Part shown: one piece after another, positions 9,190-64,000 of the stretch
Layout of the letters: every line of letters starts with the position of its first letter
Numbering within the stretch: the first letter of the stretch is position 1
From: a virus
DNA length: 64,000 nt
Virus record (IMG/VR): IMGVR_UViG_3300029258_004380
Span: 1 to 64,000 of that record
Strand: one strand, 5' to 3'
Program-made: the position numbers and the translations under genes
The notes under the pieces: model-generated
What the model was told of the DNA's origin: nothing
The model's database searches: none
The model's input: the letters and a program-made list of their open reading frames with translations, nothing else

Positions 9190-9194
9190 GGGCA

Positions 9195-9959: not shown

Positions 9960-10402
9960 CGCAGACACAGACCAAGCTGCAGCAGGACTTGCTGGATTAT
10001 GTCAACGCCAGAGAATGTCAAAAGCGGGACGCTCGCTTTGAGGAGGCAATACGGATGACCGAGGAGGCGTTTCTCAGCGAACTGGGGCAGCTGGTGGGCA
10101 ACCTCCGCGGGCGGCTTGCCGGCGATCAGGACGGCAGGCCCAAAGTCTTCCGCGATACTACGGTGACCAACCTGGCCAAGTTTTTCGGACGCTTTAAGTC
10201 GCTGAACGTCAACTCCAGCGAGCAGCTGAACCAGTTGGTGGAGGAGGCCCAGCAGCTAATCGGCGGAGTTCAGCCACAGATGCTGCGGGAAGACCTCAAC
10301 CTGAGGCAGCGGATCGGCGAGAGTCTGGGCAGCCTGCAGGAGTCTCTGGACGAACTGCTGGTAGATCGGCCGCGGAGAAACATCGTACGGAGGCCCAAGT
10401 AA
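9956..10402 (+). CDS. Helical protein of the DUF1257 neighbourhood
   Basis: GTG 9956 follows GAGGAGAAAAACC and overlaps the previous stop. The 148 residues are nearly all helical, with FFGRFKSLNVNSSEQL and a basic end DRPRRNIVRR. I believe similar proteins sit near DUF1257/DUF2997 in planctomycete genomes, but no function is known. Confidence 0.6.
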   Translation: MTQTQTKLQQDLLDYVNARECQKRDARFEEAIRMTEEAFLSELGQLVGNLRGRLAGDQDGRPKVFRDTTVTNLAKFFGRFKSLNVNSSEQLNQLVEEAQQLIGGVQPQMLREDLNLRQRIGESLGSLQESLDELLVDRPRRNIVRRPK

Positions 10403-10411
10403 GGAGAAACC

Positions 10412-10810
10412 ATGAAAGGACTACTGACTATCTCCCATTTTTCTGGGAGCAGCGAGGGCGTGAGCATCGAGGTTACCGACAAACTCAGCGGGATACCATT
10501 CTTGGAACTGGAAATCAGCCACGAGCAGTTTGGCCGTGCGCTTGGGTCGCAGGCATGCCGCCCGTGTGAATTCGAGTTGCGAGATACCGAGCGGGTTGGC
10601 AAACGGATGGAGGTCAAGACCGTGATGCTGCCCAGATATCTCGGCCAAGACCGGGAGGTGGCCCTCGCGAAATCTCTTGAGGATGCCCAGCCCTACGAGG
10701 TGGACGGCTGGGTGGCCGAGATTGAGCAGGCGTACCGGACTCAACAGCACGGCCACTACCTGGTGGTAGTCTTTCGCCGCTACGTCAACGTGGGGGAGAA
10801 CGGCAAGTAA
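10412..10810 (+). CDS. Hypothetical protein
   Basis: A 132-residue protein after AAGGAGAAACC. Alternating beta strands in the first half (EGVSIEVTDKLSGIPFLELEI), then helix and a final strand HYLVVVFRRYV. Not recognised. It shares a base with the next start. Confidence 0.6.
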   Translation: MKGLLTISHFSGSSEGVSIEVTDKLSGIPFLELEISHEQFGRALGSQACRPCEFELRDTERVGKRMEVKTVMLPRYLGQDREVALAKSLEDAQPYEVDGWVAEIEQAYRTQQHGHYLVVVFRRYVNVGENGK

Positions 10811-11160
10811 TGGACTTGGTAGTAGAAAAGACCGGCGCGGTCCGCTGTGTCTACGGCGAGGAGATCGACCTGAAAACCCTGGGCGCCCCCTCCACGCGAC
10901 GGGCCTCACACGTGGAGCCTGGCGACGGTGGCAACTGGTGGGCCGATCTTTCTCCAGTGGGTGGGCCGCTACTGGGACCTTTCGATCTGGGTACGCCAAA
11001 CAGGTCCGGCGCGCAGTCGTTGCGAACCTCGTCCACGAGGAAAGCCTGTCGCTGCTGCGCACCAGGTTGTGGCAGAACATTTTGTCTGCCCCTGTCAACG
11101 GGTAGCTTTAGAACGCGAACTGCGGCGCAGTGGCTACTACGTCCCGCCAAAACCATTTGA
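10810..11160 (+). pseudogene. Conserved small protein, probably frameshifted
   Basis: The N-terminal 60 residues (YGEEIDLKTLG, RRASHVEP, WWADLSPVGGPLLGPF) match a short planctomycete family that normally ends soon after GPF with a helix. Here the same frame continues into Cys/Arg-rich sequence that looks non-coding, while another frame reads YAKQVRRAVVANLVHEESL and a third reads LERELRRSGYYVPPKPFDY up to 11242. One or two frameshifts after about 10988 are likely. Confidence 0.5.
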
Positions 11161-11262
11161 TTATATCAGTTTCCCTCGCAGTTGGTGGTCGAGTGGACTG
11201 CTCTATTGTCTTCGTTGGCTGGCAGCTGCCGCGTACGAGTAGAAAATCTAGGAGAAAGTTTC

Positions 11263-11484
11263 ATGGAAAAGACACTCAAAGATCCTGCCGGTGGTGACTT
11301 TGTTTGGACCCAGGCCGACATTGACGGGGTGATGGGTGAACTGGGCCGACGGATGGCGCAAGGCAAGTTCGACCCCAAAACCTGGGAGGGAGAGGAATTC
11401 GAGTTCACCTTCGCCGACGGCACGGTCCACTGCGTGCTGCCAAAATACTTTGCCTACGTTTACAAGCAGTGGAAAGAGATGTAG
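11263..11484 (+). CDS. Small hypothetical protein
   Basis: A 73-residue protein after CTAGGAGAAAGTTTC. Helix, then an FEFTFADGTVHCVLP hairpin, then a final amphipathic helix. Not recognised. Confidence 0.6.
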   Translation: MEKTLKDPAGGDFVWTQADIDGVMGELGRRMAQGKFDPKTWEGEEFEFTFADGTVHCVLPKYFAYVYKQWKEM

Positions 11485-11657
11485 GAGAAAACTCCACGAG
11501 TCCTGAAATTATTGTCTGCCCGCACTGTCGAGGTAAGTGCCTCGTCGCGGATAGGGAGGAGCCCCAGGGGGCAGGAGACGGCGAGATGCCCTGCCCGGAG
11601 TGTGCGGGCGACGGGGTTATCTGCGCGCCGATGAAACTGTCGGGGGAGAGCGGATGA
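11469..11657 (+). CDS. DnaJ-like zinc-finger small protein
   Basis: A 62-residue protein with CPHCRGKC and CPECAGDG, i.e. two CxxCxGxx half-sites like the central zinc finger of DnaJ. The start is uncertain (GTG 11469 overlaps the previous gene). Small stand-alone DnaJ-type fingers are common in phages; partner unknown. Confidence 0.55.
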   Translation: MERDVGENSTSPEIIVCPHCRGKCLVADREEPQGAGDGEMPCPECAGDGVICAPMKLSGESG

Positions 11658-12223
11658 AAGTCGTCAACGAGACCCACTGGCGGACCGACCACCTGCGGCG
11701 GTTTCTCTACGCCGTGGGGCGAGAGGAATTGGAGCCGGAAGACCTCAGGCGGCTGCACGTGCGAGTGATCTACGGCCGAGGGAGGCACTACAGGTACGGC
11801 AGCACCGGCGGGTATGCTTGGTACAACAGCACCCAGATGGTGTTGAAAATGCCCCAGGAAATCGTAATTTCCTATACCCGCCGCAGCTTGGCGATGACCA
11901 TCGCGCACGAGATGGCCCACTGCCGCGGGATGCAACACCGCGACATGCGAGACAGCCCCCGGTACAGTTTCGTCGACGGTTGGTGGGAGCGATACGCCTG
12001 GGCCAACGATCTGCCGCTGGAGAAGAAGGCACCCAAGAAGAAAAAGCCCCGGCTTACTGGCGAGGCCCTGGCCGCGGAGCGGGCGGAGCATTTTCGGGGG
12101 CTGCTTGCGCAGTGGGAGACCAGGGCCAAGCGCGCCGCCACAGCAATCAAGAAATACCGCGCCAAGATCCGCTACTACGAGCGGAGAGTGGCGGCGTGTG
12201 CCAAGAGGGAAATCGATGACTGA
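11654..12223 (+). CDS. Zincin-type metalloprotease
   Basis: A 189-residue protein with TIAHEMAHCRGMQH near residues 80-93, a HExxHxxxxxH zinc signature in which the third His fits a metzincin-like or SprT-like pattern. The C-terminal third is a basic helical tail (KKAPKKKKPRL, then a long Arg/Lys/Ala helix) that could bind DNA or protein. No signal peptide, so it would act in the cytoplasm. ATG 11654 overlaps the previous stop. Confidence 0.7.
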   Translation: MKVVNETHWRTDHLRRFLYAVGREELEPEDLRRLHVRVIYGRGRHYRYGSTGGYAWYNSTQMVLKMPQEIVISYTRRSLAMTIAHEMAHCRGMQHRDMRDSPRYSFVDGWWERYAWANDLPLEKKAPKKKKPRLTGEALAAERAEHFRGLLAQWETRAKRAATAIKKYRAKIRYYERRVAACAKREIDD

Positions 12224-12698
12224 GCAGAACCAGCTTGCCGAAGTTCGCTGCCAATGCTGTGGAGAGGCTGGACACATGATCTGCGGTGACGCGAACACCT
12301 TGTGGTGTTTCAACTGCCGCAGCTGCCAGCCTGCCGGCACAGGCACTACAAGACAGGAAATCCACCAACAGCTGGACGCATTTCTGTTAGATCGCCGGAA
12401 GAGTGATGGCGGATACGCCAAAATCACCCAGAAGGACATCACAGATCTCGGTGAACTCCTACGCAAAATCATCGAAGAGAAATGCGAGCCTGATCCCGAA
12501 GGCAACCGGCCCATTGAGTTCAAGCTGATCGACCGCACACGGTTCGAGCCGATGCACTTTGTGCCAGTAGCGTACGAGCACAAGGCCGAAAACCAAGGGG
12601 ACCTTGACGAGATTCTTGACGACCACCTGCTGAATCTCTCGATTGCAATGAACCGCGTAGAAACCGAACTGCAGGTGACCAGACTGAGGAAACGATGA
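12216..12698 (+). CDS. Zinc-finger hypothetical protein
   Basis: A 160-residue protein overlapping the previous gene by eight bases. The N-terminus holds CQCCG then CFNCRSC (residues 12-37), a four-Cys zinc site. The rest is acidic and helical. Not recognised. Confidence 0.6.
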   Translation: MTEQNQLAEVRCQCCGEAGHMICGDANTLWCFNCRSCQPAGTGTTRQEIHQQLDAFLLDRRKSDGGYAKITQKDITDLGELLRKIIEEKCEPDPEGNRPIEFKLIDRTRFEPMHFVPVAYEHKAENQGDLDEILDDHLLNLSIAMNRVETELQVTRLRKR

Positions 12699-12982
12699 TC
12701 CGCAAACTTGATCTCACAGCACAACTGGTATTCCCCGACTGCCGCAAGTTCGAGGACCTCTTCTCGGCCTGGCAACCCTGGACCTGGGAACCCGCCTCAG
12801 GGCTGCCGCTGCCGTTAGGAGTGGTCTGGAAGTTTACCGAGTGGTCGGCCGAAACGCGGAGGTTTCGCAAGCGAATCCTGTACATCGGACCGCACTGCGA
12901 GGTGCGGAGCCCGCAGGGGAGCTATACCTACCTGGAGGCTGTACCCTCACAGCAGCTGCGGGCGTTTTTCCGCTGGCACTGA
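12695..12982 (+). CDS. Small Trp-rich hypothetical protein
   Basis: A 95-residue protein starting at an ATGA overlap. It has a FSAWQPWTWEPASG segment and a KFTEW/RILYIGP beta region. Not recognised. Confidence 0.55.
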   Translation: MIRKLDLTAQLVFPDCRKFEDLFSAWQPWTWEPASGLPLPLGVVWKFTEWSAETRRFRKRILYIGPHCEVRSPQGSYTYLEAVPSQQLRAFFRWH

Positions 12983-13022
12983 TCGACAGCAACACCGTCC
13001 CCAAGATCGAGGAGGAACCGCA

Positions 13023-13322
13023 GTGAACGTAAAGAAGTATGTGTCTCGCGTGACTTACTACTACAGCCCCGCCCGCGAAGAGGACCTCAGGAGCATGGTC
13101 CGCGCTAGCGGACGGTTTATCGGCCGCGACGGCGAGGAGGGGATCTCCTACTGGGTACTGGACGGCAAGGTCTACCCGATCTACAACGGTAGCAGTAGAA
13201 TGACTGAGCCGGTGGAGTATTTCGAGTTCTGCCGCAAGATCCGCAACCGGCAGCTGCCGAATTTCTGTGGTGCGGACGACTTTCACCTGGGGCATCCGGA
13301 AACTGGAGAGGCGGACAGATGA
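13023..13322 (+). CDS. Hypothetical protein
   Basis: A GTG start at 13023 after GAGGAGGAACCGCA. The 99 residues contain a VTYYYSP strand and an ISYWVLDGKVYPIY hairpin. Not recognised. It overlaps the next frame by ATGA. Confidence 0.55.
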   Translation: MNVKKYVSRVTYYYSPAREEDLRSMVRASGRFIGRDGEEGISYWVLDGKVYPIYNGSSRMTEPVEYFEFCRKIRNRQLPNFCGADDFHLGHPETGEADR

Positions 13323-13513
13323 CGTTACAGGAAGATTACTCCAGTCTGTCGCTGTCGGAGCTACTCGGTAGAGCAGCGTGACTGGAGAAAGTTCTTGTCG
13401 GGTACGCTGCCAGAACGGGCGTGCGACACAACGATTACCAGAAAATAAACGACCTGGAGTCATTGCCTGTGCGGCAAGACGACCTAGCAATTTACGAGAT
13501 TCTCGTTGAGTAA
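13319..13513 (+). pseudogene. Small gene with in-frame TGA
   Basis: The frame starts at an ATGA overlap (13319), reads MTLQEDYSSLSLSELLGRAA, meets TGA at 13379-13381, and continues in the same frame LEKVLVGYAARTGVRHND to TAA 13511-13513, just before the next ribosome site. The downstream part has no start codon. A Trp codon in place of TGA would give one natural 64-residue protein, so it is a nonsense mutation, a readthrough gene or an error. Confidence 0.55.
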
Positions 13514-47155: not shown

Positions 47156-47369
47156 CGTGTGTCTCCTCCTCTGCTGCCTTTCGCCGATTGAGAGAAATCT
47201 GCCAAAACGACAACCCTACAACAGCCAGCGATAGCCCCATCGCGGCCAGCAGAATTGCCCCGCCAGACTCTCCGAGAATGGTAAACACGCCATACGCCAC
47301 ACAGCCAGCCAGTATGCCTAAAGCCAGCAAGCAGCGGGCGCCAGTTTCGTCGCTCATCTGAGATTTCAT
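47148..47369 (-). CDS. Two-helix membrane protein
   Basis: A 73-residue protein from ATG 47369, nine bases after GGAGGG. Two membrane helices (CLLALGILAGCVAYGVFTIL and AILLAAMGLSLAVVGLSFW) with a short turn and a charged cytoplasmic tail. Holin-like topology is possible but nothing nearby is lytic. Function unknown. Confidence 0.6.
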   Translation of the reverse strand: MKSQMSDETGARCLLALGILAGCVAYGVFTILGESGGAILLAAMGLSLAVVGLSFWQISLNRRKAAEEETHDD

Positions 47370-47854
47370 ACAAAGAGTCCCTCCGGTTGCAATCTCGTCG
47401 GCACAGTCTCCAGATCCGGTAGCAAGAAAATGCCGGAGAACCAGAGAATGACGTGGACTGAAAGACCACAAACCTGTCGCTCGCAGCCTTTAGCCAGGAA
47501 TATGCTGGTGTTAAAAGAGTGAGGCCCGGCGCGGAGTGGTTCGTCTTTGAGGTGGGCAAAGTTCTCCGGGCCCAGTACCGCGTGTTTTGCCTCGCCCGAG
47601 TAGATCAGTTCGATGTTCTGCTGGCTTTGAAGGAGCACCTCGCGGACGGAGTCGTGAGAGATCGTCGCCCGGCGGTAGAACTCCTCCACCGGGTAGTGCT
47701 CCACGGAGAGCGCCCGCCACAAGCAGCGGAGAGACATCGCCCACAGCCACCTCAGCAGGTCCATCCAGCCGCTATCCAGACAGTCCTTGACGTACTCCCA
47801 CTCCTTGCCAAAAATCTCCGGGACGCAGAGGGGGATACTTTCCTGTGAGACCAT
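47366..47854 (-). CDS. Chimera: LegC-type aminotransferase N-terminus plus unrelated protein
   Basis: A 162-residue protein at an ATGA overlap. Residues 7-31 (IPLCVPEIFGKEWEYVKDCL, then DSGW) match the start of DegT/LegC aminotransferases (IPLSVPExxGNEWKYVKECLDTGW). Directly after, the sequence changes to MDLLRWLWAMSLRCLWRAL and a protein with no PLP-enzyme motifs (no catalytic Lys). A deletion seems to have fused an aminotransferase start to another gene. Confidence 0.6.
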   Translation of the reverse strand: MVSQESIPLCVPEIFGKEWEYVKDCLDSGWMDLLRWLWAMSLRCLWRALSVEHYPVEEFYRRATISHDSVREVLLQSQQNIELIYSGEAKHAVLGPENFAHLKDEPLRAGPHSFNTSIFLAKGCERQVCGLSVHVILWFSGIFLLPDLETVPTRLQPEGLFV

Positions 47855-48789
47855 CAAACAACCCCCTTGTCGGTTAGTTCGTGCAGTTCGCGGATGCCCC
47901 CAGCAACGGTGTGAACAGTGGTGTAGCCGAGCTTCTCGTTGATCTTACGGAAAGAGACCCGGTAGTCGCGGGGGTCCTCGTCGCGGTGGATAAAGTCGAC
48001 GCGGACGCCGGGGGTCAGCGGGCGGATCATCTCGACGATCCCCCGCTTGCGGAAATTCTCCTCGGTGGCCCCCACGCCAAATACCTGACGCAAGACCGTC
48101 ACCGGAGGCGATTGCAATACCTTGACGATTGCCCGGCCCACATCCACCACATGCACGTAGGGCCGCCAGAACTGCTGACCAAAGACATCCAGCTTGCCGG
48201 TGCAAACCATCTCACGGACGAACTGATTGACCGTCAGGTCCCATCGCATCCTCGGCGAGGTGCCGTAAACGGTAGCCAGCCTAAGACTGGTGCAGCAGAT
48301 GTTGTCGGAGCGGGTGTGTAGGAGGATCTTTTCAGACAGCACCTTGGTCTTGGCGTACAGCGACACCGGGTGCAGCGGCGAATTCTCGTCAACATAGCCA
48401 TCGGAGTTCTCCATCTTGCCGTAATTGCTGCAAGTGGAGGCAAAGACAAACCTTGAGATGCCGCGCGCCTTGGCTGCCGTCAACAACGCCGAAACGGCGT
48501 TGAGGTTCGTGGCCACGGCCAGTTCTGGCCGGCTGGCGCATGCCGGATCGCCCACGATCGCCGCCAGGTGCACCACTGCCTCGCAGCCGGAGACGGCCTC
48601 GTCCACGCACTCTCGGTTGCAGATGTCTCCGTGGACAAACTGGAAATCCCTGTGGGGCCAAACGCCCAGCAGCCCCTGCCCGCCGAAGGTGAGGTTATCC
48701 AGCACCCTCACAGCATGCCCAGCCGCAAGCAACTGCGGCACCAGCGCAGAGCCGATATACCCAGCCCCTCCGGTCACCAAAACTCTCAT
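47854..48789 (-). CDS. NAD-dependent nucleotide-sugar epimerase/dehydratase
   Basis: A 311-residue protein: TGGAGYIGS (NAD-binding), VHLAAIVGDP, FASTCSNYG (catalytic Ser/Thr), SLYAKTK (YxxxK) and RPYVHVVDVG are the extended SDR family. It resembles UDP-hexose 4-epimerase/GDP-sugar type enzymes more than the LegB/PseB dehydratases. It follows the nucleotidyltransferase and likely modifies its NDP-sugar product. Confidence 0.82.
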   Translation of the reverse strand: MRVLVTGGAGYIGSALVPQLLAAGHAVRVLDNLTFGGQGLLGVWPHRDFQFVHGDICNRECVDEAVSGCEAVVHLAAIVGDPACASRPELAVATNLNAVSALLTAAKARGISRFVFASTCSNYGKMENSDGYVDENSPLHPVSLYAKTKVLSEKILLHTRSDNICCTSLRLATVYGTSPRMRWDLTVNQFVREMVCTGKLDVFGQQFWRPYVHVVDVGRAIVKVLQSPPVTVLRQVFGVGATEENFRKRGIVEMIRPLTPGVRVDFIHRDEDPRDYRVSFRKINEKLGYTTVHTVAGGIRELHELTDKGVV

Positions 48790-48791
48790 AA

Positions 48792-49859
48792 CTACTCGCC
48801 TTTCTCCGCGTCTCGTTGCGCGTTCCGGTAGTCCTCCACAGTCCCTACATCCATCCAGTATTCGATAATTGGAAAGCTGCAGATCGTCATTCCGCTACCC
48901 AGCAGCCGCAAAATCAGGTCCGGCATATCAATCTGCTCACCCGCCGCGATGTGCTCGTAGACCACCGGCTCCAGCAGGTAGATCCCGGCGCTCACCGAGA
49001 GCGTCAGCGAGGGTTTTTCCGATATCCCCGTCACCAGCCCGTTCTCGATCTCCACCACACCATAGGGCACCCGAAAATCAAACTGACGAACGCCCAGAGT
49101 GAGATCCGCCTGCTGCTCGCGGTGGTAAGCAAACAGGGCCTCGAAGCTCAGATTGGTATGGATGTCGCCGTTTACCACCAGCGTGGTACAAGCGGGCGGC
49201 GGGTTGAGCGTACCCAAAGAGCCGGCGGTACCCAGCGGCAAACCCTCGGTGGTGTATTGAATCTCCAGACCAAAGTCTCGGCCGTCGCCAAAATGTTCGG
49301 TGATCTGCTCGGCCAGGTATCCGGTGCTAATCGTCATCCGCCGCACACCGGCGTTCTGCAACTTGCGGACCAGATGCTCAATCAGCGGGCGGTCGCCCAC
49401 CGGAAGCATTGGTTTTGGCGTGTCCTCGGTTAGTGGACGCAGCCTAGAGCCCCGCCCCCCGGCCATCACCACTGCGTGCACTGGAGGAGGTTCGTCCGGC
49501 AGCAGTTCGTCCAGACGGACAACCCCCACGACCACCCCAGCATCATTCACTAACGGCAGGTGCTTTAGTTGGGCAGCGTGCATGATCCGCGAGAGCATGG
49601 CCTTCGGAGCGTCGGCAGGGGCGGTCACCGTAGGTGCGGGAATCTTGCCCGCCCGGCGCAACAGCAACGCACCGACTGGGCTGTCCAGCCCCATACCCTC
49701 CAGCACAGCCCGGCGGATGTCCCCGTCGGTCGCCGTCCCCACCAGAGCTCCGCCTGCGACCACCAGGGCGATCCCTTTGGCTCCCCGGTCGATCACCTCC
49801 AGCACCTCGTAGAGGGTCTGCTCGGGGGCAACAAAGAATTCATCGCAGGCAGCGTTCAT
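48792..49859 (-). CDS. CBS-domain sugar nucleotidyltransferase (PtmE-like)
   Basis: A 355-residue protein from ATG 49859; the frame further upstream is a shadow. Residues 1-115 hold two CBS motifs (VGTATDGDIRRAV, LPLVNDAGVVVGVV). Residues 120-355 are a nucleotidyltransferase: AVVMAGGRGSRLRPLTEDTPKP, VVNGDIHT, DVGTVEDY. This architecture matches PtmE, the glucosamine-1-phosphate guanylyltransferase of the legionaminic acid pathway. Substrate is inferred. Followed by the epimerase with a two-base gap. Confidence 0.8.
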   Translation of the reverse strand: MNAACDEFFVAPEQTLYEVLEVIDRGAKGIALVVAGGALVGTATDGDIRRAVLEGMGLDSPVGALLLRRAGKIPAPTVTAPADAPKAMLSRIMHAAQLKHLPLVNDAGVVVGVVRLDELLPDEPPPVHAVVMAGGRGSRLRPLTEDTPKPMLPVGDRPLIEHLVRKLQNAGVRRMTISTGYLAEQITEHFGDGRDFGLEIQYTTEGLPLGTAGSLGTLNPPPACTTLVVNGDIHTNLSFEALFAYHREQQADLTLGVRQFDFRVPYGVVEIENGLVTGISEKPSLTLSVSAGIYLLEPVVYEHIAAGEQIDMPDLILRLLGSGMTICSFPIIEYWMDVGTVEDYRNAQRDAEKGE

Positions 49860-49863
49860 GCAG

Positions 49864-50532
49864 CTAGCTCCTGTGAAAGTCTCGGGCGGGAAACTGGCGA
49901 CCCTTGGCACCCACCGCCACCGTGTTGTCAGGAACATCGCGGTAGACGGCCATCCCCGCGCCGATAATCGCGCCGCTGCCGATCGAGACCCCCGGCCGTA
50001 CGCTAACCCCGGCGCCGATCGCCGCGCAGGCGCCCACCACCACACCGCCCGCCATGCTCACACCGGTGGCCACAGTAGCAAAATCACCCAGCACGCAGTC
50101 GTGCTCAACGATCGCCCCAGTATTGACAACCACGCCCTGGCCGAGCTTGGCCCGCGAGTGGACCACTGAGTAGGGCATACACTGGCAGCCAAGCCCGCAG
50201 TCGGCCGAGGACGACACCACCGCCGTAGGGTGTCTTACGGTGACCGGGTGGAGCTGTTGGCCACAGGCCAGCTCAAAGAGTTCTCTCCGCAGCAGAGAAT
50301 TGCCCGCCGCAGCGATAAAGCTGTCCACCCCCTCGGCCACGAGTCCCGGCAAGAGTTTGTCGGTGCCTCGGATGGGCACGCCCAGCAACCGATCACCGAC
50401 ACGGTCAGCGTCATCACAGAGGATCGCCCGCAGCAGATCGCTGCCAGGGGCCTGGGCCCGCAAACATTCGATCAACACGGCGGCGTGGCCGCCTGCGCCG
50501 AACATCACGCAGTATTTCTTACCACAGAACAT
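49864..50532 (-). CDS. NeuD/PglD/LegH-type sugar acetyltransferase
   Basis: A 222-residue protein. N-terminal GAGGHAAVLIECL binds the nucleotide sugar; the C-terminal half is a left-handed beta helix of hexapeptide repeats (VVNTGAIVEHDCVLGDFATV) with the catalytic His in VEHDC. Members acetylate sialic acid or amino sugars (LegH, PglD). Follows NeuC and precedes PtmE-like in the gene order. Confidence 0.82.
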   Translation of the reverse strand: MFCGKKYCVMFGAGGHAAVLIECLRAQAPGSDLLRAILCDDADRVGDRLLGVPIRGTDKLLPGLVAEGVDSFIAAAGNSLLRRELFELACGQQLHPVTVRHPTAVVSSSADCGLGCQCMPYSVVHSRAKLGQGVVVNTGAIVEHDCVLGDFATVATGVSMAGGVVVGACAAIGAGVSVRPGVSIGSGAIIGAGMAVYRDVPDNTVAVGAKGRQFPARDFHRS

Positions 50533-50537
50533 CTTGG

Positions 50538-51656
50538 TTATCCGTCTTGGAACTTCTTGACGATCAGTTGCTGATCTAGAGACACCTCGGCCAGCCGGGC
50601 GCAGATGATCTTTGCCGCCCCACCCTTGTCATAGGGGTTTTTAAGGGCCTTCAGCGAGTCGCGAAACTCCTCGCCGGTGGCCCGGCAAATCGCGTCGCGG
50701 ATGGCGACCGAATCAGCCGGCACGCTGATCACGTTCCTGGCCCGTTGACGGCCCGCCTGCCGATTGCCGACGTTGATCACCGGCAGGCCAAACGAGGCTG
50801 CCTCTACGATCCCGCTGGAGGAGTTGCCCACCATCGCCGCAGCGTTACTCATCACGCTGAAATAGACCTGCCAACCAAGGGTTTCGTAAAGTTCCGCGTT
50901 GGGGTGGCTATCGACGTACTCGCGAACCCGCCGGGACACCATGCCACCAAAGGTGTCTGTGTTCGTGCCTGTGAACAACACCGGCCGCTGGGTCATCTCC
51001 AAGGCCGCCAGCAGGTGCTCGACTTGGTATGACACGCTTTCGTATTCCAGCGTTGTGGGGTGAAAGGTGACCAAGAGGGTCTCTTCGGTCACGAAAACCC
51101 CCAGTTCGGCCAGTTCACGGCAGGTGTAAAATGACATCCCCCGACCATTGTCCAGCGAGGGCGCCCCCGAAACGGTAATCCGCCAATCCTCCTCTCCCAT
51201 CTGGGCAATTCTCTGAGCACTCTGCCGAGTGGCCACAAAGTGTAGGTGGGCGAGTTTGGTGATCGAGTGCCGAAGGCTGTCGTCGATGGCCCCCCACGAG
51301 ATCTCCCCGCCGTGAATGTGGGCAGTGGGGATCTTTTGTGGCAGTGCGGCCACTGCCGCCGAGTGCATCTCGTAGCGGTCGCCGCAGACCAGCAGAATGC
51401 TGGGACGGGTCCTCGCCAGGGCGTCGGCAAACCCCAGCGTGTGCAAGCCCATCGAGCGGGCGATCGCCGTAGGGCAGTCGTGCCCAGGCAACATGTCCAC
51501 GACCTCATCGGCCACAAAGCCGTCAGCAAGTTGGTGGTGCCCAGCGGTAAATATCCGCAACTGCAGCGATGGGTTGCCCCGAATCGCCAGCATCACCGGC
51601 CGCAAAATCCCGTAGTCGGCCCGGTTGGTAGTAACAACGCCGATAGTTCTAGTCAT
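50538..51656 (-). CDS. UDP-GlcNAc 2-epimerase, hydrolysing (NeuC/LegG type), copy 1
   Basis: A 372-residue protein from ATG 51656. TTNRADYGILRPVM, LLVCGDRYEM, AHIHGGEISWGAIDDSLRH, ITKLAHLHFVAT, GNSSSGIVEAASFGLP and NVGNRQAGR are the NeuC/LegG motifs. It converts a UDP-HexNAc to free ManNAc-type sugar, the substrate for NeuB/LegI. ThyX sits just upstream with a four-base overlap. Confidence 0.88.
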   Translation of the reverse strand: MTRTIGVVTTNRADYGILRPVMLAIRGNPSLQLRIFTAGHHQLADGFVADEVVDMLPGHDCPTAIARSMGLHTLGFADALARTRPSILLVCGDRYEMHSAAVAALPQKIPTAHIHGGEISWGAIDDSLRHSITKLAHLHFVATRQSAQRIAQMGEEDWRITVSGAPSLDNGRGMSFYTCRELAELGVFVTEETLLVTFHPTTLEYESVSYQVEHLLAALEMTQRPVLFTGTNTDTFGGMVSRRVREYVDSHPNAELYETLGWQVYFSVMSNAAAMVGNSSSGIVEAASFGLPVINVGNRQAGRQRARNVISVPADSVAIRDAICRATGEEFRDSLKALKNPYDKGGAAKIICARLAEVSLDQQLIVKKFQDG

Positions 51657-52381
51657 GTAGTCTTCTCCAGTTTGAGAACCTCCAACTGGTCGCCAAAGAT
51701 CACCGGCAATCGCGAGGCCATCTGCCGCAGCAGAGAGCACATGATCTGGCGGATCTGCCACTGGGCCCGTTTGTTCAGAGCCCGTTCGCGAAACACGTGC
51801 CGCCACTGACGGAGGTTGAACGTGCTAACCACCTCGGTCTTGGTGGCGTTGGGCAGAACGCTGCGGGCGTCCTCGGGCGGGATGCCGTCTTCCCGAAGAT
51901 CCAAATACTCTTTGTACTCTCGCCGTCTGTTATCCAGCCACTTGCATAAACGGTTGCTGTCGAGGTCCGTACCACACCCCTCGTGATCCCAGACCGACAT
52001 ACACCCGAGACCCGCACGATGCTCCCAAGTTCCGGGTGCTAGATATCCAATACTCGGCGGGCAAACAACCTGCAGGCCCTTCTTGCCGTAGTCGCAGTAC
52101 CGCTGCGACTCCTGCGAGTACGCCGCGATCCGGTGACGGACCAGCTGGTGGGACATCGAGCGGTCGCCGATGATCCGTGCTGTATAGACCGCGTGCTCGA
52201 TCACCGACTCGTGGCCGCGATTGATAATCCCGCGAATAAATTTCCCGGCCGAGTCGTCTGTGGCCTTGTCCTCGCTCTTGTAGCAGGTCCTGCCAGCGTC
52301 CTCCAACAGTCGCATGATCTCGGCATCCCAAGACACTGGGGTGATAATTTCCGCCGAGGGTTTAACAATGGTGATTTTCAT
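51653..52381 (-). CDS. thyX: Flavin-dependent thymidylate synthase ThyX
   Basis: A 242-residue protein. SHQLVRHRIAAYSQESQRYC contains the ThyX motif RHRxxSxxxxSxRY with Ala in place of the first Ser, a variation that occurs in the family. ESVIEHAVYTARI holds the flavin-site His, and WRHVFRERALNKRAQWQIR the second FAD/dUMP-binding stretch. It makes dTMP from dUMP with FAD and methylene-THF, served by the deaminase at 27655. Confidence 0.9.
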   Translation of the reverse strand: MKITIVKPSAEIITPVSWDAEIMRLLEDAGRTCYKSEDKATDDSAGKFIRGIINRGHESVIEHAVYTARIIGDRSMSHQLVRHRIAAYSQESQRYCDYGKKGLQVVCPPSIGYLAPGTWEHRAGLGCMSVWDHEGCGTDLDSNRLCKWLDNRRREYKEYLDLREDGIPPEDARSVLPNATKTEVVSTFNLRQWRHVFRERALNKRAQWQIRQIMCSLLRQMASRLPVIFGDQLEVLKLEKTT

Positions 52382-57385: not shown

Positions 57386-57962
57386 GGAAACCTCCCTCGA
57401 CTCTCAGTTCGGCGGCCTTGCGGATCAGCCGGATCACGTCCATCGCATCCTCCACAGCCGTGTGCGAGACCTGTTTGTCGTACCCAGCCCGTTTTAGACA
57501 GGTCGCCATGTCGGGTAGCTGCCGATCCTCTCCGCAGCGCCACCAGAGCAGCCCCGGGTCGATCACGCGGTGGTGAAACTGCACGTCGTCGTCGAAATTC
57601 GGCAGGCGGCGCAAAAACTGCAGGTCAAAGCCCGCAAAGTTCTTACCCGCCGCAGTAATCTTGTCGTGATACTGGTGGTGCCAGAGAAACTTGGCAAACA
57701 ACTTCCCCAACTCGCCGGGTTCAACACAGAGCGCGCCCTCCGCGCCCTTCCCCGTAGCCAGAACACGAAAGATCCTTGTGTGCATTGACAAGGCGTACGC
57801 CTGCCCCTGAAACAGCCCGTGGTGGATATAGGCGTGAAACACGGGCAGGTTATCCAGCGGGGCCTGGTTGTCAAGGTCGTCAATCACGGCTGCGAACTCG
57901 ATCACATCGCAGGTGGCGGGGTCAAGGCCGGTGGTCTCCAGATCAATCGATACGTACCTCAT
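57372..57962 (-). CDS. DEDD 3'-5' exonuclease (DnaQ/oligoribonuclease-like)
   Basis: A 196-residue protein, ATG at 57962. MRYVSIDLETTGLDP (DxE), NFAGFDLQFL (exo II Asp) and HTAVEDAMDVIRLI (exo III HxAxxD) give the DEDDh active site. Single-domain size suits a stand-alone proofreading or RNA/DNA-degrading enzyme. Overlaps the genes on both sides. Confidence 0.85.
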   Translation of the reverse strand: MRYVSIDLETTGLDPATCDVIEFAAVIDDLDNQAPLDNLPVFHAYIHHGLFQGQAYALSMHTRIFRVLATGKGAEGALCVEPGELGKLFAKFLWHHQYHDKITAAGKNFAGFDLQFLRRLPNFDDDVQFHHRVIDPGLLWWRCGEDRQLPDMATCLKRAGYDKQVSHTAVEDAMDVIRLIRKAAELRVEGGFHVRG

Positions 57963-58801
57963 GCACAAAAATCCTTTCTCGGCAGCACCAGGTGCGCAGG
58001 CACCACATCGCCGTGTTCAAGGTTGCAATCAATAAGGTCCGCGCCGCAGTTGCGCAGGTTGGAAAACCCGGCCCACTGCCCGCAAGTCACATCCAGATAG
58101 CCCGGCCAAGCGATCCGTCCGTGGTCAATGTCGTAAAAGTACCCCGGCCGAGTAAGATACTGGCAACCAGCCAGCCGGACCTCGGCCCCTGGGTTGAGGA
58201 TGCAGGCCAAGTGCGCGGCGGCGGTGAGCACCGAGGCGTGGTGATACAGCGAGTAGGGCGGCTGCCTCCAGGACATCCCCCGCAAGACCACCGGCAGGCT
58301 GCAGTGGGTGGTAAACCAACTAACCGGTAGCCCACTCTGCTCGACAATCCGGCGGATCTCCGGCAGGGCGGCAGTCTCGGAGACAAACAGCCTCAGCAAC
58401 CGAGACCGCAACAAGGTGTCGCTGCGGATCACATCCAGCTGTCGCCGCAGCAGCGCGCACATCTGGGGCGTGTGTGTATCCAGCAGCATCCAGCAAGTGG
58501 GCCGAAAACCCAGCAGCCGCCAGTGCTCAGGAAAGTGGTTGACACAAAACACCCAGGGGGCGCGGTCTAGATGTTTCCGCTCGGCCAGGGTGAGGTATTT
58601 CAGCTGCCAGGAGTTGCCCAGCACGTAGGACGGCCCCAGCGGATAATTCCACTCGGGGTTCTCGGGGTGCTTGTAGCGGCAAGTGCGGTACTCGCTGGCC
58701 GCAAGTAGGTCGTTCTTGGGTAGCGGCTGCCGCGCAGACAGTCTCTCACGGACGATCTTTTGGGTCACCTCGGGGGCGCCACCCATCGTGGGTGCAGGCA
58801 T
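57959..58801 (-). CDS. Putative glycosyltransferase-like protein
   Basis: A 280-residue protein from ATG 58801 (GGAGAGACTGAG). Residues 1-25 (GGAPEVTQKIVRERLSAR) match the N-terminus of the acidic protein at 24341. Then a basic linker and a domain with WVFCVNHFPEHWRLLGFRP, CWMLLDTHTP, FVSETAALPEIRR, a WFTTHCSLPV and EVRLAGCQYL. The order recalls GT42/DUF115-type Rossmann glycosyltransferases, but no single motif is decisive. The location between NanA-like lyase and other genes of the sugar cluster supports a glycan role. Confidence 0.4.
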   Translation of the reverse strand: MPAPTMGGAPEVTQKIVRERLSARQPLPKNDLLAASEYRTCRYKHPENPEWNYPLGPSYVLGNSWQLKYLTLAERKHLDRAPWVFCVNHFPEHWRLLGFRPTCWMLLDTHTPQMCALLRRQLDVIRSDTLLRSRLLRLFVSETAALPEIRRIVEQSGLPVSWFTTHCSLPVVLRGMSWRQPPYSLYHHASVLTAAAHLACILNPGAEVRLAGCQYLTRPGYFYDIDHGRIAWPGYLDVTCGQWAGFSNLRNCGADLIDCNLEHGDVVPAHLVLPRKDFCA

Positions 58802-58802
58802 C

Positions 58803-59720
58803 TCAGTCTCTCCTCGTGGACAGACGCGGGAGTCTTTCCAGCCAATCCGCAACAAGTTCGAGCCAAGGACCCTCGTCCTCTCTCTCACCAACAAAGCCGA
58901 CGGGATAGCGGCAGACGCCCACATCGATCTCGTACCGCTGCCTGATCGCCTCAGCCACAAAGCGGTACCCGCCACGAAACAGCGCGATCCTGACCATTTT
59001 CTGAAATTCAATCATGAACCGGGCCGCCAGACTCGCGTCACCGCCGAGAAACGCCCTTCGCACCTGCGAGCACTCCGGCCCAAAGACACCGAAGAAGGTG
59101 CCGATAGCTCCCACCGCTCCGGAGAGCGCGGCGTGGCAGAAGACCTCGTCGTGGCCGCTGAACAGCCGCAGCCGGTCTCCTGCATAGCCGTGAATCAGAC
59201 CAAACTGGTTGAGGTCCCCGGTGGTGATTTTCATGCCCGCAATCGTGGGAATCTCCAACAGTTCACCGACGTAGTCGCAAACATCAAGCAAAGACTTCTT
59301 AACTAAGTCGATCTGGTAGATGTACAACGGCAACGAACACGCCTCAGAGATCTGGCGGTAGTGCCCAAAAACGGCACGCATGGGCAGGTCGTAGTAGACC
59401 GGCCCCACCGCAGAGATCGCGTCGGCCCCGATCCGCTCGGCATGTAGCGCCAGCCTAACAGCCTCAGAGGTGGTCATCGCACCCACGTGGACAAACACCG
59501 GCAGCCGGCCGGCTGCGGCGTCGACGACCGTAGCTGCAAACTCCTGCCGCTCCTCGGTGGAGAGCAAAAGACCCTGGCCGGTGCTGCCGAGGATATACAG
59601 CCCACCCAGTTGCTGGTCGCAGTACACGTCCACCAGCTTTCGGGCGGCCGTATGGTTGAGCCTGCCCGAATCTGTCATCGGCGTAACCATTGCGGGCCAG
59701 ACCCCGGCGTCATAAATCAT
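58803..59720 (-). CDS. DHDPS/N-acetylneuraminate lyase family aldolase
   Basis: A 305-residue TIM-barrel protein. YILGSTGQGLLLS (GSTGE-type motif of the NanA group), YYDLPMRAVFGHYR, LYIYQID (catalytic Tyr) and IAGMKITTGD (Schiff-base Lys) mark class-I pyruvate aldolases. In this setting a sialic-acid-type lyase, or a synthase of a related keto acid, is most likely. It overlaps NeuC copy 2 by four bases. Confidence 0.82.
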   Translation of the reverse strand: MIYDAGVWPAMVTPMTDSGRLNHTAARKLVDVYCDQQLGGLYILGSTGQGLLLSTEERQEFAATVVDAAAGRLPVFVHVGAMTTSEAVRLALHAERIGADAISAVGPVYYDLPMRAVFGHYRQISEACSLPLYIYQIDLVKKSLLDVCDYVGELLEIPTIAGMKITTGDLNQFGLIHGYAGDRLRLFSGHDEVFCHAALSGAVGAIGTFFGVFGPECSQVRRAFLGGDASLAARFMIEFQKMVRIALFRGGYRFVAEAIRQRYEIDVGVCRYPVGFVGEREDEGPWLELVADWLERLPRLSTRRD

Positions 59721-60844
59721 CTACGAACCTCCTGAAACTGTTTTTGTGGTATCGCCTGCCAGGAGCACCGCCGCAAGATCGCCACGAATTTCTCTGCGCT
59801 GCCCCCCTCGCCAAACGGGTAGTTTGGCTTGACCGCTTTGGGTAGGGCAGCCATTGCCATCAAGATTTCGTTTTCGTTCTCGTCCACATGGACCACCGCC
59901 GGGCTGTCACCCCGGTTGCGCTGCCGAGTGCCGAGATTGATCGCGGGCACCCCGTAAACGGGCGCCTCGCGAATCCCGCTGCTGGAGTTGCCCAGCACAA
60001 ACTGGGCGTGCTTGAGCAACGAAAGGTAATACTCAAACCGCATCGAGGGATAGATGCGAAACCGCCCCCAACAGTCGGGCATCAGCATCTCGGAGATCGC
60101 CCGGCGGATCACCTCCGCGCCGGGATCGTTGTTAGGCTGAATCACCACATAACTGTGGGTCGACTCCACCATCGCCATCAGAACCTCGCCGATTTTGTCA
60201 GGCAGGTCCGCCAGTTCGTCGGAGACGGAGTGGTAGCAGAAGATGGCATACTGGTCGAACGGGATCGAATACCGCTGCTTAACCTTCTCGATCTCAGGCA
60301 GCGAGCCGAGCATCACGTCCACCTCCGGGGAGCCGATCTGGTGGATCGACCGGGGGTCCTCACCCATCTGCTCGACGCGGTTCTGGGCCTCCCGGTTGGC
60401 CACAAAGTGCATGTGTGAGAGTTTGGTCACTGCGTGGCGGACGACCTCGTCGATGGTGCCGGAGAGTTCTCCGCCCTCAATGTGTGCCACCGGCACGCCG
60501 CAGGCGTTGCCCACAATCGCCCCGGCCAGGGCCTCCATGCGATCGCCGTGAATCACGATCAGCTGCGGGCGGACCTCGCAGACGTATTTCGACAGCCCCG
60601 AGACGGTCTCGGCCAACACCAGTTCGGGCCGGTTCTGCTCGGCCGTCTGGTTAAAGCACAAGAAGAGGTTGCTGAAATCGCACTTGCGGATCTCCAAATA
60701 GGTCTCGCCGTGCGCAGCCAGCAGGTGCATCCCAGTAGCAAAGACATACTCCACCAGCGTGGGGTCGTCGTGGACGGCGCGGATCAGCGGCTTGAGCTTG
60801 CCGAAATCGGCGCGGGTACCGGTGATAAACAGGATCTTGCGCAT
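59717..60844 (-). CDS. UDP-GlcNAc 2-epimerase, hydrolysing (NeuC/LegG type), copy 2
   Basis: A 375-residue protein. ITGTRADFGKLKPLIRAV, LIVIHGDRMEAL, AHIEGGELSGTIDEVVRH, VTKLSHMHFVAN, GNSSSGIREAPVYGVP and NLGTRQRNR are the full NeuC/LegG motif set. It starts right at the NeuB stop (shared base at 60844). It differs enough from copy 1 to suggest a second substrate or separate acquisition. Confidence 0.88.
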   Translation of the reverse strand: MRKILFITGTRADFGKLKPLIRAVHDDPTLVEYVFATGMHLLAAHGETYLEIRKCDFSNLFLCFNQTAEQNRPELVLAETVSGLSKYVCEVRPQLIVIHGDRMEALAGAIVGNACGVPVAHIEGGELSGTIDEVVRHAVTKLSHMHFVANREAQNRVEQMGEDPRSIHQIGSPEVDVMLGSLPEIEKVKQRYSIPFDQYAIFCYHSVSDELADLPDKIGEVLMAMVESTHSYVVIQPNNDPGAEVIRRAISEMLMPDCWGRFRIYPSMRFEYYLSLLKHAQFVLGNSSSGIREAPVYGVPAINLGTRQRNRGDSPAVVHVDENENEILMAMAALPKAVKPNYPFGEGGSAEKFVAILRRCSWQAIPQKQFQEVRR

Positions 60845-61884
60845 CAGGCGATCATGTCCCAGGTGAGTTGCATGTCGGCGGGGATGACGCAGGCGGCTGT
60901 TCGCCCGTAGACCTGATCCAGATCGTCGGCCTGCAGCGGCCCAGTCCCCGGCCGCTTTACCCAGACGTTATGGCGGTCGAGGAGTTCTCCCTCGGCAATC
61001 TCCCGAGTGCTCACCACCGAGGCAAAGGCAAACTCGGCAACGGACTCCTCCTCCGGCAGTACGTTCTTGCCCGAACCAATGGCGGTGTACGCCTGCTGTA
61101 CTCCATCAACCAGATCCCGCATCTGCTGGGGGTTGGCCGAAACGGGGATGTCGGGGCCAGAGAGCCACGACGAGCAGGTAAAATGCTTCTCGATGATGCT
61201 CGCTCCCATCCCCACAGCGGCAAAGGCGGCGTAGTTGTTGGTAGTGTGATCGCTGAGGCCCACCACGGCGTCGGGGAATCTCTTGCGCAGAAACTCCATT
61301 CCCCGCAGGTGGACCTTGTCGACCGGCGTGGGATAGATCGAGGTACACTGCAGCAGCGCAAACGGCACCTTGGCCTCGCGGAGGATCTCCACCGAGCGGG
61401 CCACCGACGGCAGGTTGTTCATCCCCGTAGAGAGGATCACCGGCTTGCCGAAACCGGCGATGTGCCTGACCAGCGGCCGGTTGTTACACTCGCCGCTGCC
61501 GATCTTGAACGCCTCTACGCTCATCCGGGCAAGCCGCAACGCCGCCTCGGCAGAGAAGGGCGTGCTCAGGTAGATCATCCCCTCCCGCTCGACCAGCTGC
61601 TTGAAATGAAAATCCTCAGCTTGGCTAAGCGAGCAGCGGTCAATCAGAGAATAGACATCCTCGCCCGTTCCAGTTATGACTTTCTTGGCGTGCGGGGACA
61701 TCTCCTTATCGGCGATGTGGCACTGAAATTTTACACACTCGCAGCCGCAGCCCTTGGCGGCGCGGACCATGTCAGTGGCGAGATCCAGATGGCCTCGGTG
61801 GTTGATGCCAATCTCGGCGATTACCAAAGGCGAGTAGCCAGAGCCGACGTAACGGCGTCCGAGTCGCAAGAAATTGGCTGTCAT
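60844..61884 (-). CDS. Nonulosonic acid synthase NeuB/LegI-like
   Basis: A 346-residue protein. VIAEIGINHRGHLDLA, CVKFQCHIADK, FKIGSGECNNRPLVRHIA, VILSTGMNN, LLQCTSIYPTP, VGLSDHT, SIIEKHFT are the NeuB TIM-barrel active-site motifs; residues 285-346 are a SAF domain (AEGELLDRHNVWVKRPGTG). It condenses phosphoenolpyruvate with ManNAc or a related sugar to a nonulosonic acid. Which acid is made cannot be told. Confidence 0.9.
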   Translation of the reverse strand: MTANFLRLGRRYVGSGYSPLVIAEIGINHRGHLDLATDMVRAAKGCGCECVKFQCHIADKEMSPHAKKVITGTGEDVYSLIDRCSLSQAEDFHFKQLVEREGMIYLSTPFSAEAALRLARMSVEAFKIGSGECNNRPLVRHIAGFGKPVILSTGMNNLPSVARSVEILREAKVPFALLQCTSIYPTPVDKVHLRGMEFLRKRFPDAVVGLSDHTTNNYAAFAAVGMGASIIEKHFTCSSWLSGPDIPVSANPQQMRDLVDGVQQAYTAIGSGKNVLPEEESVAEFAFASVVSTREIAEGELLDRHNVWVKRPGTGPLQADDLDQVYGRTAACVIPADMQLTWDMIA

Positions 61885-61896
61885 CGGTTCCTCCGT

Positions 61897-62745
61897 TCAA
61901 TTGGGTTTGCTGCCGAGAATGTCGCGCCACGCAGGAGAGGTCCGCGAGATCCAGTTGAGAAGTTTCTGGCAAGCCTCTGCGTCCAGCCCCTCCAGGCTGC
62001 GAAAGGCCGCTGCTGCTGCCGAGATCAACCAGTCCTGCTTGGGTGGGCAGTATTTGACGATTCCCTTGATCTGCCCGGTGTACATCTTGCGGTACCAGTC
62101 CGCATCGCGAGCGGAGGACGGAAAGACTTGGTGCTCGTGGTGCGTCTTCAGCACCCTGGCGTATCGCCCGCCGTGGTTTTCGACCAGAGCCCGAAAGACC
62201 AAGTCCTCGTTGCGGTAGAGGTACCCATCATCCTCGATCTTGTGTAGAAACGGGGCAAAGGCGCTGCGGCGGGCCAGCTGGCTGCCGCTGTAGGGCCTTG
62301 CAGCAGCGTTCTGCGCGGCGGCTACGGTCTTGGCCCCCGTCCGCAGATCGTGCCACACCCGACCACACTCCATAAACTCCGCCAGCGACGAGTGGGCCCA
62401 CATCACGTCGTACCAGCCGCCAACCACCCGCACGTCGGCGTGCAGATAGACGAACCACTCCGAACTGACACACTCGATCAGTTCGGCGATGCAGTAACCC
62501 AGCGACCTGTAACACCGCTGGTCAAGAACCGTCATCCTCGGGTAGGGACGAGAAAGCAGCCAGTAGCTATCGTTGATTTCGCAGTTGCCGATCAGCAGAC
62601 GACGGATGGGGATCTCGGCGTAGTGGAATTTCAGGTTGTTGTGAAACTCCAGCGGCGGCTGCCCTTTCATGGGGATGATCACGTCCACCCCCACGTCGGA
62701 GGTCAGGTAGCGGTCCTTCTCCAGCGGCGAGTTGAGTCTGTTCAT
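61897..62745 (-). CDS. Glycosyltransferase family 2-like protein
   Basis: A 282-residue protein from ATG 62745 at an ATGA overlap with the fusion gene. DVGVDVIIPMKGQPP strand, YCIAELIECVSSEWFVYLHA, DVRVVGGW (HADV replaces DxD), YSGSQLARRSAFAPF and DGYLYRNEDLVFRALVE (acidic base region) fit a GT-A glycosyltransferase. Donor unknown; its coupling to the sialyl/sulfotransferase suggests one glycan. Confidence 0.7.
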   Translation of the reverse strand: MNRLNSPLEKDRYLTSDVGVDVIIPMKGQPPLEFHNNLKFHYAEIPIRRLLIGNCEINDSYWLLSRPYPRMTVLDQRCYRSLGYCIAELIECVSSEWFVYLHADVRVVGGWYDVMWAHSSLAEFMECGRVWHDLRTGAKTVAAAQNAAARPYSGSQLARRSAFAPFLHKIEDDGYLYRNEDLVFRALVENHGGRYARVLKTHHEHQVFPSSARDADWYRKMYTGQIKGIVKYCPPKQDWLISAAAAAFRSLEGLDAEACQKLLNWISRTSPAWRDILGSKPN

Positions 62746-63995
62746 AGAAAAGTCACCTTTCCCTCGGCCACCAGTTCCGAAAAAATCTCGTGCTCGCGGT
62801 GGTAATTCTGCCCAGTGGCAAAAGGCTTGTTGGGAGCGTAGTAGTGGCAAGGACCACGATCATCGGGTTTGCCAAAACCGACCAGCGAGATCACTTGGTT
62901 AGGAAAGCGGTCCATCGCCTTGTAGGTGGCAATCAGACCAGTGGAGGGCCCCTTGACCTTGGCATGCAAACGCCGCTCCACCCTGGCGGGCGTAAGTTCG
63001 ATCTTCCGCTGCGCAGATGGGTCGATGGGACGAAACCACTGTAAAAACTGAAAGAACTCCTCACGGTTCTTGACCGTGCTAAACGGTATCCAGATCGCCT
63101 CCAAGGTGGGAAGAAAGTCGGCGAGATCCACCCCGTACTGTTGGCAAAAATTTCGCAGCTTGAAATTGGCGCCGTTCCAGGTGGAAAGCGCCCAGCAGTC
63201 GGTCCTCCGCCCCACGTCTACCTCAAACCCCTGCGTGATGAACGAGTTGCAGCGAACGACCAGATCGTGGGCGTCGATCTGCTCGCCCAACCCCCGCCCG
63301 AGCAGTTCCGCCGAATTGCCGACGATGATGATTGACCCCTGCGATCTCCCAGAGGCGGGAGCGCCCCGCAACAAGTACCCGTTAGTGATCAGCCACTCTC
63401 GATACGTCTGCTCGATAGCCCCCACAATTTCCTCGGAGAGGGTTTTTTGGTAAGTGCCCGTGCCCCCATCGGTGAAATGGTTGGGGTGGAGCATGGTCAC
63501 CGGGTCGATCACGTCGCCAGGGCGGAGTTCCTCAACCTGCCGATTCACCCGCTCAGCGTCGCACTCCACGCCCAGAACCTTGGCGATCTCGACGATAGCG
63601 AGAGGCTTGTCGCGGATCATCTCCTCGTAGGAGACCAGGAGGTCGGCGCGAGGTGACCAACCGCGAGACTCGTGGCGGATAAGCGTGCGTAAGAACTCGA
63701 TCACCGCCGACATGTCGTGGGCAACCAGCCCCATGCGGACGGCGGAGGCAGCAACGTCCCGCAGGTCCCGGCGGGTGGTGAGGACGTAGTCACCAAGTTC
63801 CTCCCACTGCGGATCGTAGCGGTGGATCTTGAGGATGTGCACAGGAGCCGGATTGGCGGGGTTGTAGTCCCCAGTAGCGAAAGAACAGTAAATGTCGCGG
63901 TTGTCGTTGAGATAGATGAAACGGACCACGTTGTAGAGCCACGTACTCCCAGCACGGTGCATTCCGGCGCAAAGTATCCTCAGTGGTCGCTCCAT
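62742..63995 (-). CDS. Sulfotransferase fused to a GT29-type sialyltransferase
   Basis: A 417-residue protein. Residues 10-200: GMHRAGSTWLYNVV (PAPS 5'-phosphosulfate loop) and YVLTTRRDLRDVAASAVR (3'-phosphate site) mark a sulfotransferase. Residues 220-417: IIIVGNSAELLG, GEQIDAHDLVVRCN with VGRRTDCWAL (sialylmotif L), KGPSTGLIATYKAM (motif S) and QNYHREHEIFSEL (motif VS, His and Glu) mark a GT29 sialyltransferase. No signal peptide or membrane anchor. It would use CMP-nonulosonate from the adjacent pathway. The ATG is five bases from the window end. Confidence 0.82.
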   Translation of the reverse strand: MERPLRILCAGMHRAGSTWLYNVVRFIYLNDNRDIYCSFATGDYNPANPAPVHILKIHRYDPQWEELGDYVLTTRRDLRDVAASAVRMGLVAHDMSAVIEFLRTLIRHESRGWSPRADLLVSYEEMIRDKPLAIVEIAKVLGVECDAERVNRQVEELRPGDVIDPVTMLHPNHFTDGGTGTYQKTLSEEIVGAIEQTYREWLITNGYLLRGAPASGRSQGSIIIVGNSAELLGRGLGEQIDAHDLVVRCNSFITQGFEVDVGRRTDCWALSTWNGANFKLRNFCQQYGVDLADFLPTLEAIWIPFSTVKNREEFFQFLQWFRPIDPSAQRKIELTPARVERRLHAKVKGPSTGLIATYKAMDRFPNQVISLVGFGKPDDRGPCHYYAPNKPFATGQNYHREHEIFSELVAEGKVTFL

Positions 63996-64000
63996 CTACG

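What the first reader, a model, noticed from the sequence alone, without database searches (positions are those of the whole stretch)
62742..63995. Sulfotransferase-GT29 sialyltransferase fusion
GT29 enzymes are best known from animals, where they work in the Golgi; here an L/S/VS motif set sits behind a PAPS-type sulfotransferase in one 417-residue soluble chain next to NeuB/NeuC. One protein could sulfate and sialylate the same glycan. I know of GT29-like genes in some bacteria and phages, but not of this fusion.
Basis: partly seen in the sequence, partly recalled or inferred. Interest (0 to 1): 0.85.

Follow-up and report, generated by a model that had tools for sequence, protein, structure and literature searches.

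The report
Phage sulfotransferase fused to sialyltransferase-fold domain
A bacterial virus carries a gene set for making sialic acid and attaching it to a glycan, and one of its proteins joins a sulfate-adding enzyme to a sialyltransferase-type domain that appears to have lost its key catalytic residue, so it probably sulfates rather than sialylates.

Summary
ORF 62742-63995(-), 417 aa, is one open frame with a PAPS-sulfotransferase domain (1-210) and a GT29 sialyltransferase-family domain (221-412); Pfam, a confident AlphaFold model (pLDDT 87) and Foldseek agree. The record is a phage (67.6 kb). Beyond the window edge a second, stand-alone GT29 gene abuts the fusion, followed by CMP-sialate synthetase (NeuA), a methyltransferase and a tail-fibre gene; downstream lie NeuB, NeuC and a NanA-like gene. 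So the phage encodes UDP-GlcNAc to CMP-sialate plus transferase.

The interpretation needs correcting. Sialylmotif VS (H-x4-E) reads Q396-NYHR-E401 in the fusion: the catalytic base His is Gln. That His is kept in 89/89 other viral and 108/111 bacterial GT29 domains compared, and in the neighbouring stand-alone GT29. Best reading: the neighbour sialylates; the fusion sulfates, with its GT29 half as a docking module.

GT29 genes are common in phages (118 viral stretches), often fused to GT8 or methyltransferases and beside NeuB/NeuA. Four related viral contigs carry GT29 and sulfotransferase as adjacent genes, and stand-alone relatives of the sulfotransferase half exist. The sulfotransferase-GT29 fusion itself was found only here. 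New variant of a known kind; interest 0.6.

The parts
62742..63995 (-). Sulfotransferase-GT29 fusion ORF, 417 aa
63366..63995 (-). PAPS sulfotransferase domain, residues 1-210: GMHRAGSTWL (11-20), KIH (56-58), R76-x7-S84, GTGTYQK (178-184)
   Evidence: Pfam; stand-alone viral relatives; Foldseek SULT hits; motif positions
62742..63335 (-). GT29-family domain, residues 221-417: motif L (225-250), S (350-353), III HYY (384-386); VS degenerate (Q396-NYHR-E401)
   Evidence: Pfam; alignment of 203 domains; PDB profile alignment; Foldseek
62793..62810 (-). Sialylmotif VS with the catalytic His replaced by Gln396 (codon CAG)
63996..64000 (-). 3' end of the stand-alone GT29 gene (record 63996-64655; continues outside the window); VS His present
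61897..62745 (-). 282-aa ORF, unassigned (GT-A-like by eye), overlapping the fusion by 4 bases
60844..61884 (-). NeuB-type N-acetylneuraminate synthase with SAF domain
   Evidence: Pfam; TIGR03569 341 bits, below its cut-off of 400
59717..60844 (-). NeuC-type hydrolysing UDP-GlcNAc 2-epimerase
   Evidence: TIGR03568 361 bits, cut-off 236
58803..59720 (-). DHDPS/N-acetylneuraminate lyase family protein
   Evidence: Pfam; NCBIfam best NanA, below cut-off
57959..58816 (-). 285-aa ORF of unknown family, 40% identical to record 66107-66805 at the other end of the cassette

Best explanation
This is part of a phage-encoded glycan-capping operon next to a tail-fibre gene. NeuC, NeuB and NeuA make CMP-sialate from UDP-GlcNAc, and the stand-alone GT29 transfers it. 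The fusion protein is a soluble PAPS-dependent sulfotransferase whose C-terminal GT29 domain is a diverged paralogue of that transferase. It keeps the CMP-sialate-binding motifs but lacks the catalytic base, so it most likely serves to dock the sulfotransferase on the same glycan (or on the sialylated product), giving a sulfated and sialylated glycan through two proteins rather than one. Shown by computation: domain identities, gene order, loss of the VS His, paralogy, recurrent GT29-sulfotransferase and GT29-NeuB/NeuA neighbourhoods. Inferred: enzymatic activities, docking role, acceptor glycan, and whether it is on the virion or the host surface.
For: Pfam for both halves; AlphaFold mean pLDDT 86.6, sulfotransferase half about 94; Foldseek to ST8SiaIII, ST3Gal1 and ST6GalNAc2, and to SULTs, S4 and Teg12 sulfotransferases. 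Stand-alone homologues of residues 5-208 in viral contigs, e.g. L258 8e-54, ending where the domain ends. Sulfotransferase motifs intact. VS His replaced by Gln while kept in 89/89 viral and 108/111 bacterial comparison domains, the column aligning with the catalytic His of ST3Gal1 2wnb; H316A of human ST3Gal1 is inactive (PMC6884586). Neighbouring GT29 keeps the His; sister in the tree, support 97/81. NeuA, NeuB, NeuC in one tightly packed strand, most junctions abutting or overlapping. GT29 beside a sulfotransferase gene in L019, L103, L102, L066.
Against: His399 lies three residues after Gln396 at the start of the following helix and could in principle substitute. His to Gln is one transversion in a single metagenomic assembly, so an error or rare allele cannot be excluded. 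The rest of the GT29 half is not decayed. The docking role has no direct evidence. The acceptor is unknown.
Confidence: 0.5

Rival explanations
1. True bifunctional enzyme: the GT29 half still transfers a nonulosonic acid, using His399 or an unusual mechanism, and the sulfotransferase half sulfates the same glycan.
For: Motifs L, S and III including H384 are intact; the fold is well predicted; the GT29 domain's branch is shorter than that of its paralogue (1.25 against 2.14), so it is not running down.
Against: The VS His is otherwise nearly invariant and required in ST3Gal1 (PMC6884586); a competent GT29 is encoded next door, so the pathway does not need it.
Confidence: 0.28
2. The GT29 half is a passive remnant of tandem duplication with no role beyond folding; only the sulfotransferase matters.
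For: Catalytic base lost; tandem paralogues; relatives of the sulfotransferase half occur as free-standing proteins.
Against: The other signature residues of the domain are kept; GT29 and sulfotransferase genes are neighbours in other viruses, suggesting the pairing is useful.
Confidence: 0.15
3. Assembly or sequencing artefact: two genes joined, or the Gln396 codon miscalled.
For: Only one record of this fusion; no near-identical record was found; His to Gln is one base.
Against: Open frame across both domains with a normal linker, continuous packed operon, similar GC3 in both halves, and other GT29 fusions in phages.
Confidence: 0.05

Closest known systems
Eukaryotic GT29 sialyltransferases (ST3Gal1, ST8SiaIII, ST6GalNAc2)
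   Same: Fold and sialylmotifs L, S and III; Foldseek E down to 6.5e-10; profile E 8e-29 to 2wnb
   Different: No N-terminal membrane anchor apparent (the model is globular from residue 5), fused to a sulfotransferase, VS His replaced by Gln
Bacterial GT29-like sialyltransferases (PMC5811610)
   Same: Share the sialylmotifs, lack the membrane anchor; often multi-domain in our scan (PF01501, PF04230, PF00534, methyltransferases)
   Different: That paper describes bacterial proteins and mentions no phage; no sulfotransferase partner seen in the N-extended bacterial members examined
Phage GT29 fusions: GT8-GT29 (L036, L048, L055, L083, L129), methyltransferase-GT29 (L054, L110, L128)
   Same: Phage, GT29 as the C-terminal module behind a glycan-modifying enzyme
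   Different: Different N-terminal enzyme; VS His intact
Stand-alone viral sulfotransferases (L258, L259, L260, L256)
   Same: Homologous over residues 5-208 with the same PAPS motifs
   Different: No GT29 domain attached; no NeuB or NeuA found in their stretches
Adjacent GT29 and sulfotransferase genes in viral contigs L019, L066, L102, L103
   Same: Same two functions side by side, with NeuB in the same cluster in L019 and L102
   Different: Two genes; the sulfotransferases are distant relatives; the four contigs are related viruses

Membership tests
GT29 (CAZy/Pfam PF00777 sequence family) | Profile match over the curated cut-off | tested here: met
   68.8 bits, cut-off 23
GT29 (CAZy/Pfam PF00777 sequence family) | GT29 fold | tested here: met
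   Foldseek top hits are GT29 structures
GT29 sialyltransferase (active enzyme) | Sialylmotif L (VGN...IDxHDxVxRxN) | tested here: met
   residues 225-250
GT29 sialyltransferase (active enzyme) | Sialylmotif S (STG) and motif III (HYY) | tested here: met
   351-353 and 384-386
GT29 sialyltransferase (active enzyme) | Sialylmotif VS, H-x4-E with catalytic base His | tested here: not met
   Q396-x4-E401; His in 89/89 viral and 108/111 bacterial domains
GT29 sialyltransferase (active enzyme) | Transfer from CMP-sialate | not testable with these tools
   needs enzyme assay
PAPS sulfotransferase (PF00685) | Profile match over the curated cut-off | tested here: met
   27.6-31.4 bits, cut-off 22
PAPS sulfotransferase (PF00685) | 5'-phosphosulfate loop, 3'-phosphate motif R-x7-S, K-x-H, C-terminal G-rich loop | tested here: met
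   residues 11-20, 76-84, 56-58, 178-184; shared with viral relatives; assignment of motif roles from general knowledge of SULT enzymes
PAPS sulfotransferase (PF00685) | Sulfotransferase fold | tested here: met
   Foldseek 8xjq 8.4e-8, SULT1E1, Teg12
PAPS sulfotransferase (PF00685) | PAPS-dependent activity | not testable with these tools
   needs enzyme assay
CMP-sialate biosynthesis cassette | NeuC, NeuB and NeuA type genes together | tested here: met
   TIGR03568 over cut-off; NeuB and NeuA by Pfam, below the NCBIfam equivalog cut-offs, so the exact nonulosonate is not fixed

The most novel reading that the evidence does not exclude
Phages have turned a GT29 sialyltransferase into a non-catalytic targeting domain that delivers a sulfotransferase to sialylated (or sialic-acid-accepting) glycans made by an adjacent active paralogue: a phage-encoded sulfo-sialyl capping system of virion or host surface.
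Probability: 0.35. Interest if true: 0.78.

Novelty: new variant of a known kind. Interest (0 to 1): 0.6.

Why it matters
It links sialylation and sulfation, two hallmark glycan caps of animal cells, inside a phage, and shows that GT29 genes are widespread in phages together with NeuB and NeuA and in varied domain fusions. If the docking idea holds, it would be a glycosyltransferase fold reused to aim a sulfotransferase, and a source of soluble enzymes for making sulfated sialosides. It also raises a testable question: which glycan, on virion or host, do these phages decorate?

Tried and rejected
A family-wide alignment of 8 phage GT29s was too diverged for the search for related loci; the smaller one found little, so a degenerate L-motif DNA pattern was used instead. 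Single-sequence search for the sulfotransferase half found nothing in viral contigs or phages and weak plasmid hits; a motif pattern succeeded. The first AlphaFold run gave a poor sulfotransferase half for lack of homologues; adding viral relatives fixed it, although four distant sulfotransferases in that alignment were misplaced by MAFFT. The idea that the flanking paralogues (57959-58816 and record 66107-66805) are GT29- or GT42-like got no firm support. Searches for papers on phage GT29 or a sulfotransferase-GT29 fusion gave nothing relevant.

Full report
What is there. The ORF at 62742-63995 on the minus strand is a single open frame of 417 residues starting with ATG. Pfam places a GT29 domain at 221-412 (6.5e-19) and a sulfotransferase domain in the first 210 residues. 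An AlphaFold model built with viral relatives of both halves has mean pLDDT 86.6, with pLDDT below 50 only at 216-218 in the linker and 274-276 in a loop. Foldseek against the PDB matches GT29 enzymes (ST8SiaIII 5bo9 6.5e-10; ST3Gal1 2wnb) and PAPS sulfotransferases (8xjq 8.4e-8, SULT1E1, Teg12).

Context. The window is positions 1-64000 of a 67,557-base virus record with head maturation protease, tail collar fibre, DNA polymerase, DnaB-like helicase, primase and processivity factor genes, so it is a tailed phage. Just past the window edge lies a second, stand-alone GT29 gene (record 63996-64655) with zero spacing to the fusion, then NeuA (CTP_transf_3, 7.8e-20), a methyltransferase, an unassigned ORF and a tail-fibre gene. 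Downstream of the fusion are a 282-aa ORF, NeuB, NeuC and a NanA-like gene. Most junctions overlap or abut, with gaps of 12 and 47 bases at two. By established knowledge of these enzyme families, together they encode UDP-GlcNAc to ManNAc to sialic acid to CMP-sialic acid, and transfer. NeuB and NeuA score below the NCBIfam equivalog cut-offs, so the exact nine-carbon acid is not settled.

The missing residue. Aligning 203 GT29 domains from viruses and bacteria, the fusion keeps motif L (VGNS...IDAHDxVxRxN), motif S (PSTG) and motif III (HYY). At the first residue of motif VS it has Gln396, where 89 of 89 other viral and 108 of 111 bacterial domains have His. A profile alignment to ST3Gal1 (2wnb) puts this column on the His of its HDGDFE motif. 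In human ST3Gal1 this His (H316) is the catalytic base and its Ala mutant is inactive (PMC6884586). The stand-alone neighbour keeps the His (HDYSAE). The two phage GT29 domains are each other's best match in the set and sisters in a tree (support 97/81), consistent with tandem duplication. Hence the claim that one protein does both reactions is not the best reading.

The sulfotransferase half. It has the phosphosulfate loop GMHRAGSTWL, the R-x7-S 3'-phosphate motif, a K-x-H and a C-terminal glycine-rich loop. Stand-alone relatives of 207 aa and more occur in other viral contigs, the best at 8e-54, ending at residue 208 of the fusion. That fixes the domain border and argues against an assembly join of unrelated pieces.

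Is the pairing meaningful? A DNA pattern for motif L returned 118 viral stretches and at least 118 bacterial ones; by my own estimate about one viral match would be expected by chance. Of 82 N-extended proteins scanned (including the fusion), all match GT29 and only this one has a sulfotransferase; other partners are GT8, pyruvyltransferase, GT1, capsule synthesis and methyltransferase domains. In viral contigs L019, L103, L102 and L066 a GT29 gene is directly followed by a sulfotransferase gene (11-24 bases apart), with NeuB in the same cluster in L019 and L102. These four are related viruses, so this is perhaps one or two independent events. NeuB lies near GT29 in about a dozen viral loci, including a 484-kb phage with at least five GT29 genes.

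Mechanism. Shown by computation: domain identity, operon, loss of the VS His, paralogy, recurrent neighbourhoods. Inferred: the neighbour transfers sialic acid; the fusion transfers sulfate from PAPS; its GT29 half binds CMP-sialate or the glycan and positions the sulfotransferase. The acceptor and its location (virion fibre or host surface) are unknown; virion glycosylation is known for other phages (mycobacteriophage, cited in PMC12691614).

Novelty. Bacterial GT29 has been reported (PMC5811610). The literature searches found no paper on phage GT29 or on this fusion, with the limit that subscription papers are mostly not held. I rate it a new variant of a known kind. Limits: one record only, no reads, His to Gln is one base, and activities are untested.

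Noticed in passing
window 47366-51806 (-): A second nonulosonate-like cluster: another NeuC/LegG-type epimerase (TIGR03568 362 bits), a PglD-like acetyltransferase, a CBS plus nucleotidyltransferase (PtmE-like), an NAD epimerase and a short ORF whose start resembles a DegT aminotransferase (by eye). It looks like part of a legionaminic acid pathway.
   Followed up: partly
window 57959-58816 and record 66107-66805: Two paralogues of unknown family (40% identical) flank the cassette; weak profile likeness to GT29 (hhalign probability 12%), no solved relative.
   Followed up: partly
L008 (LR756508.1, 484 kb phage) 8558-13376: Four GT29 genes around a NeuB gene within about 5 kb, at least five GT29 genes in the record.
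   Followed up: partly
L036, L048, L053, L055, L083, L109, L116, L125, L129: GT8-GT29 fusions in viral contigs (L109 with an added GT2 domain); Pfam run one by one on L036, L109 and L129, the others by sequence likeness.
   Followed up: partly
   Followed up: no
stand-alone GT29, record 63996-64655: It keeps the VS His but departs at two other conserved positions (HD to HA in motif L, STG to SHG in motif S).
   Followed up: no
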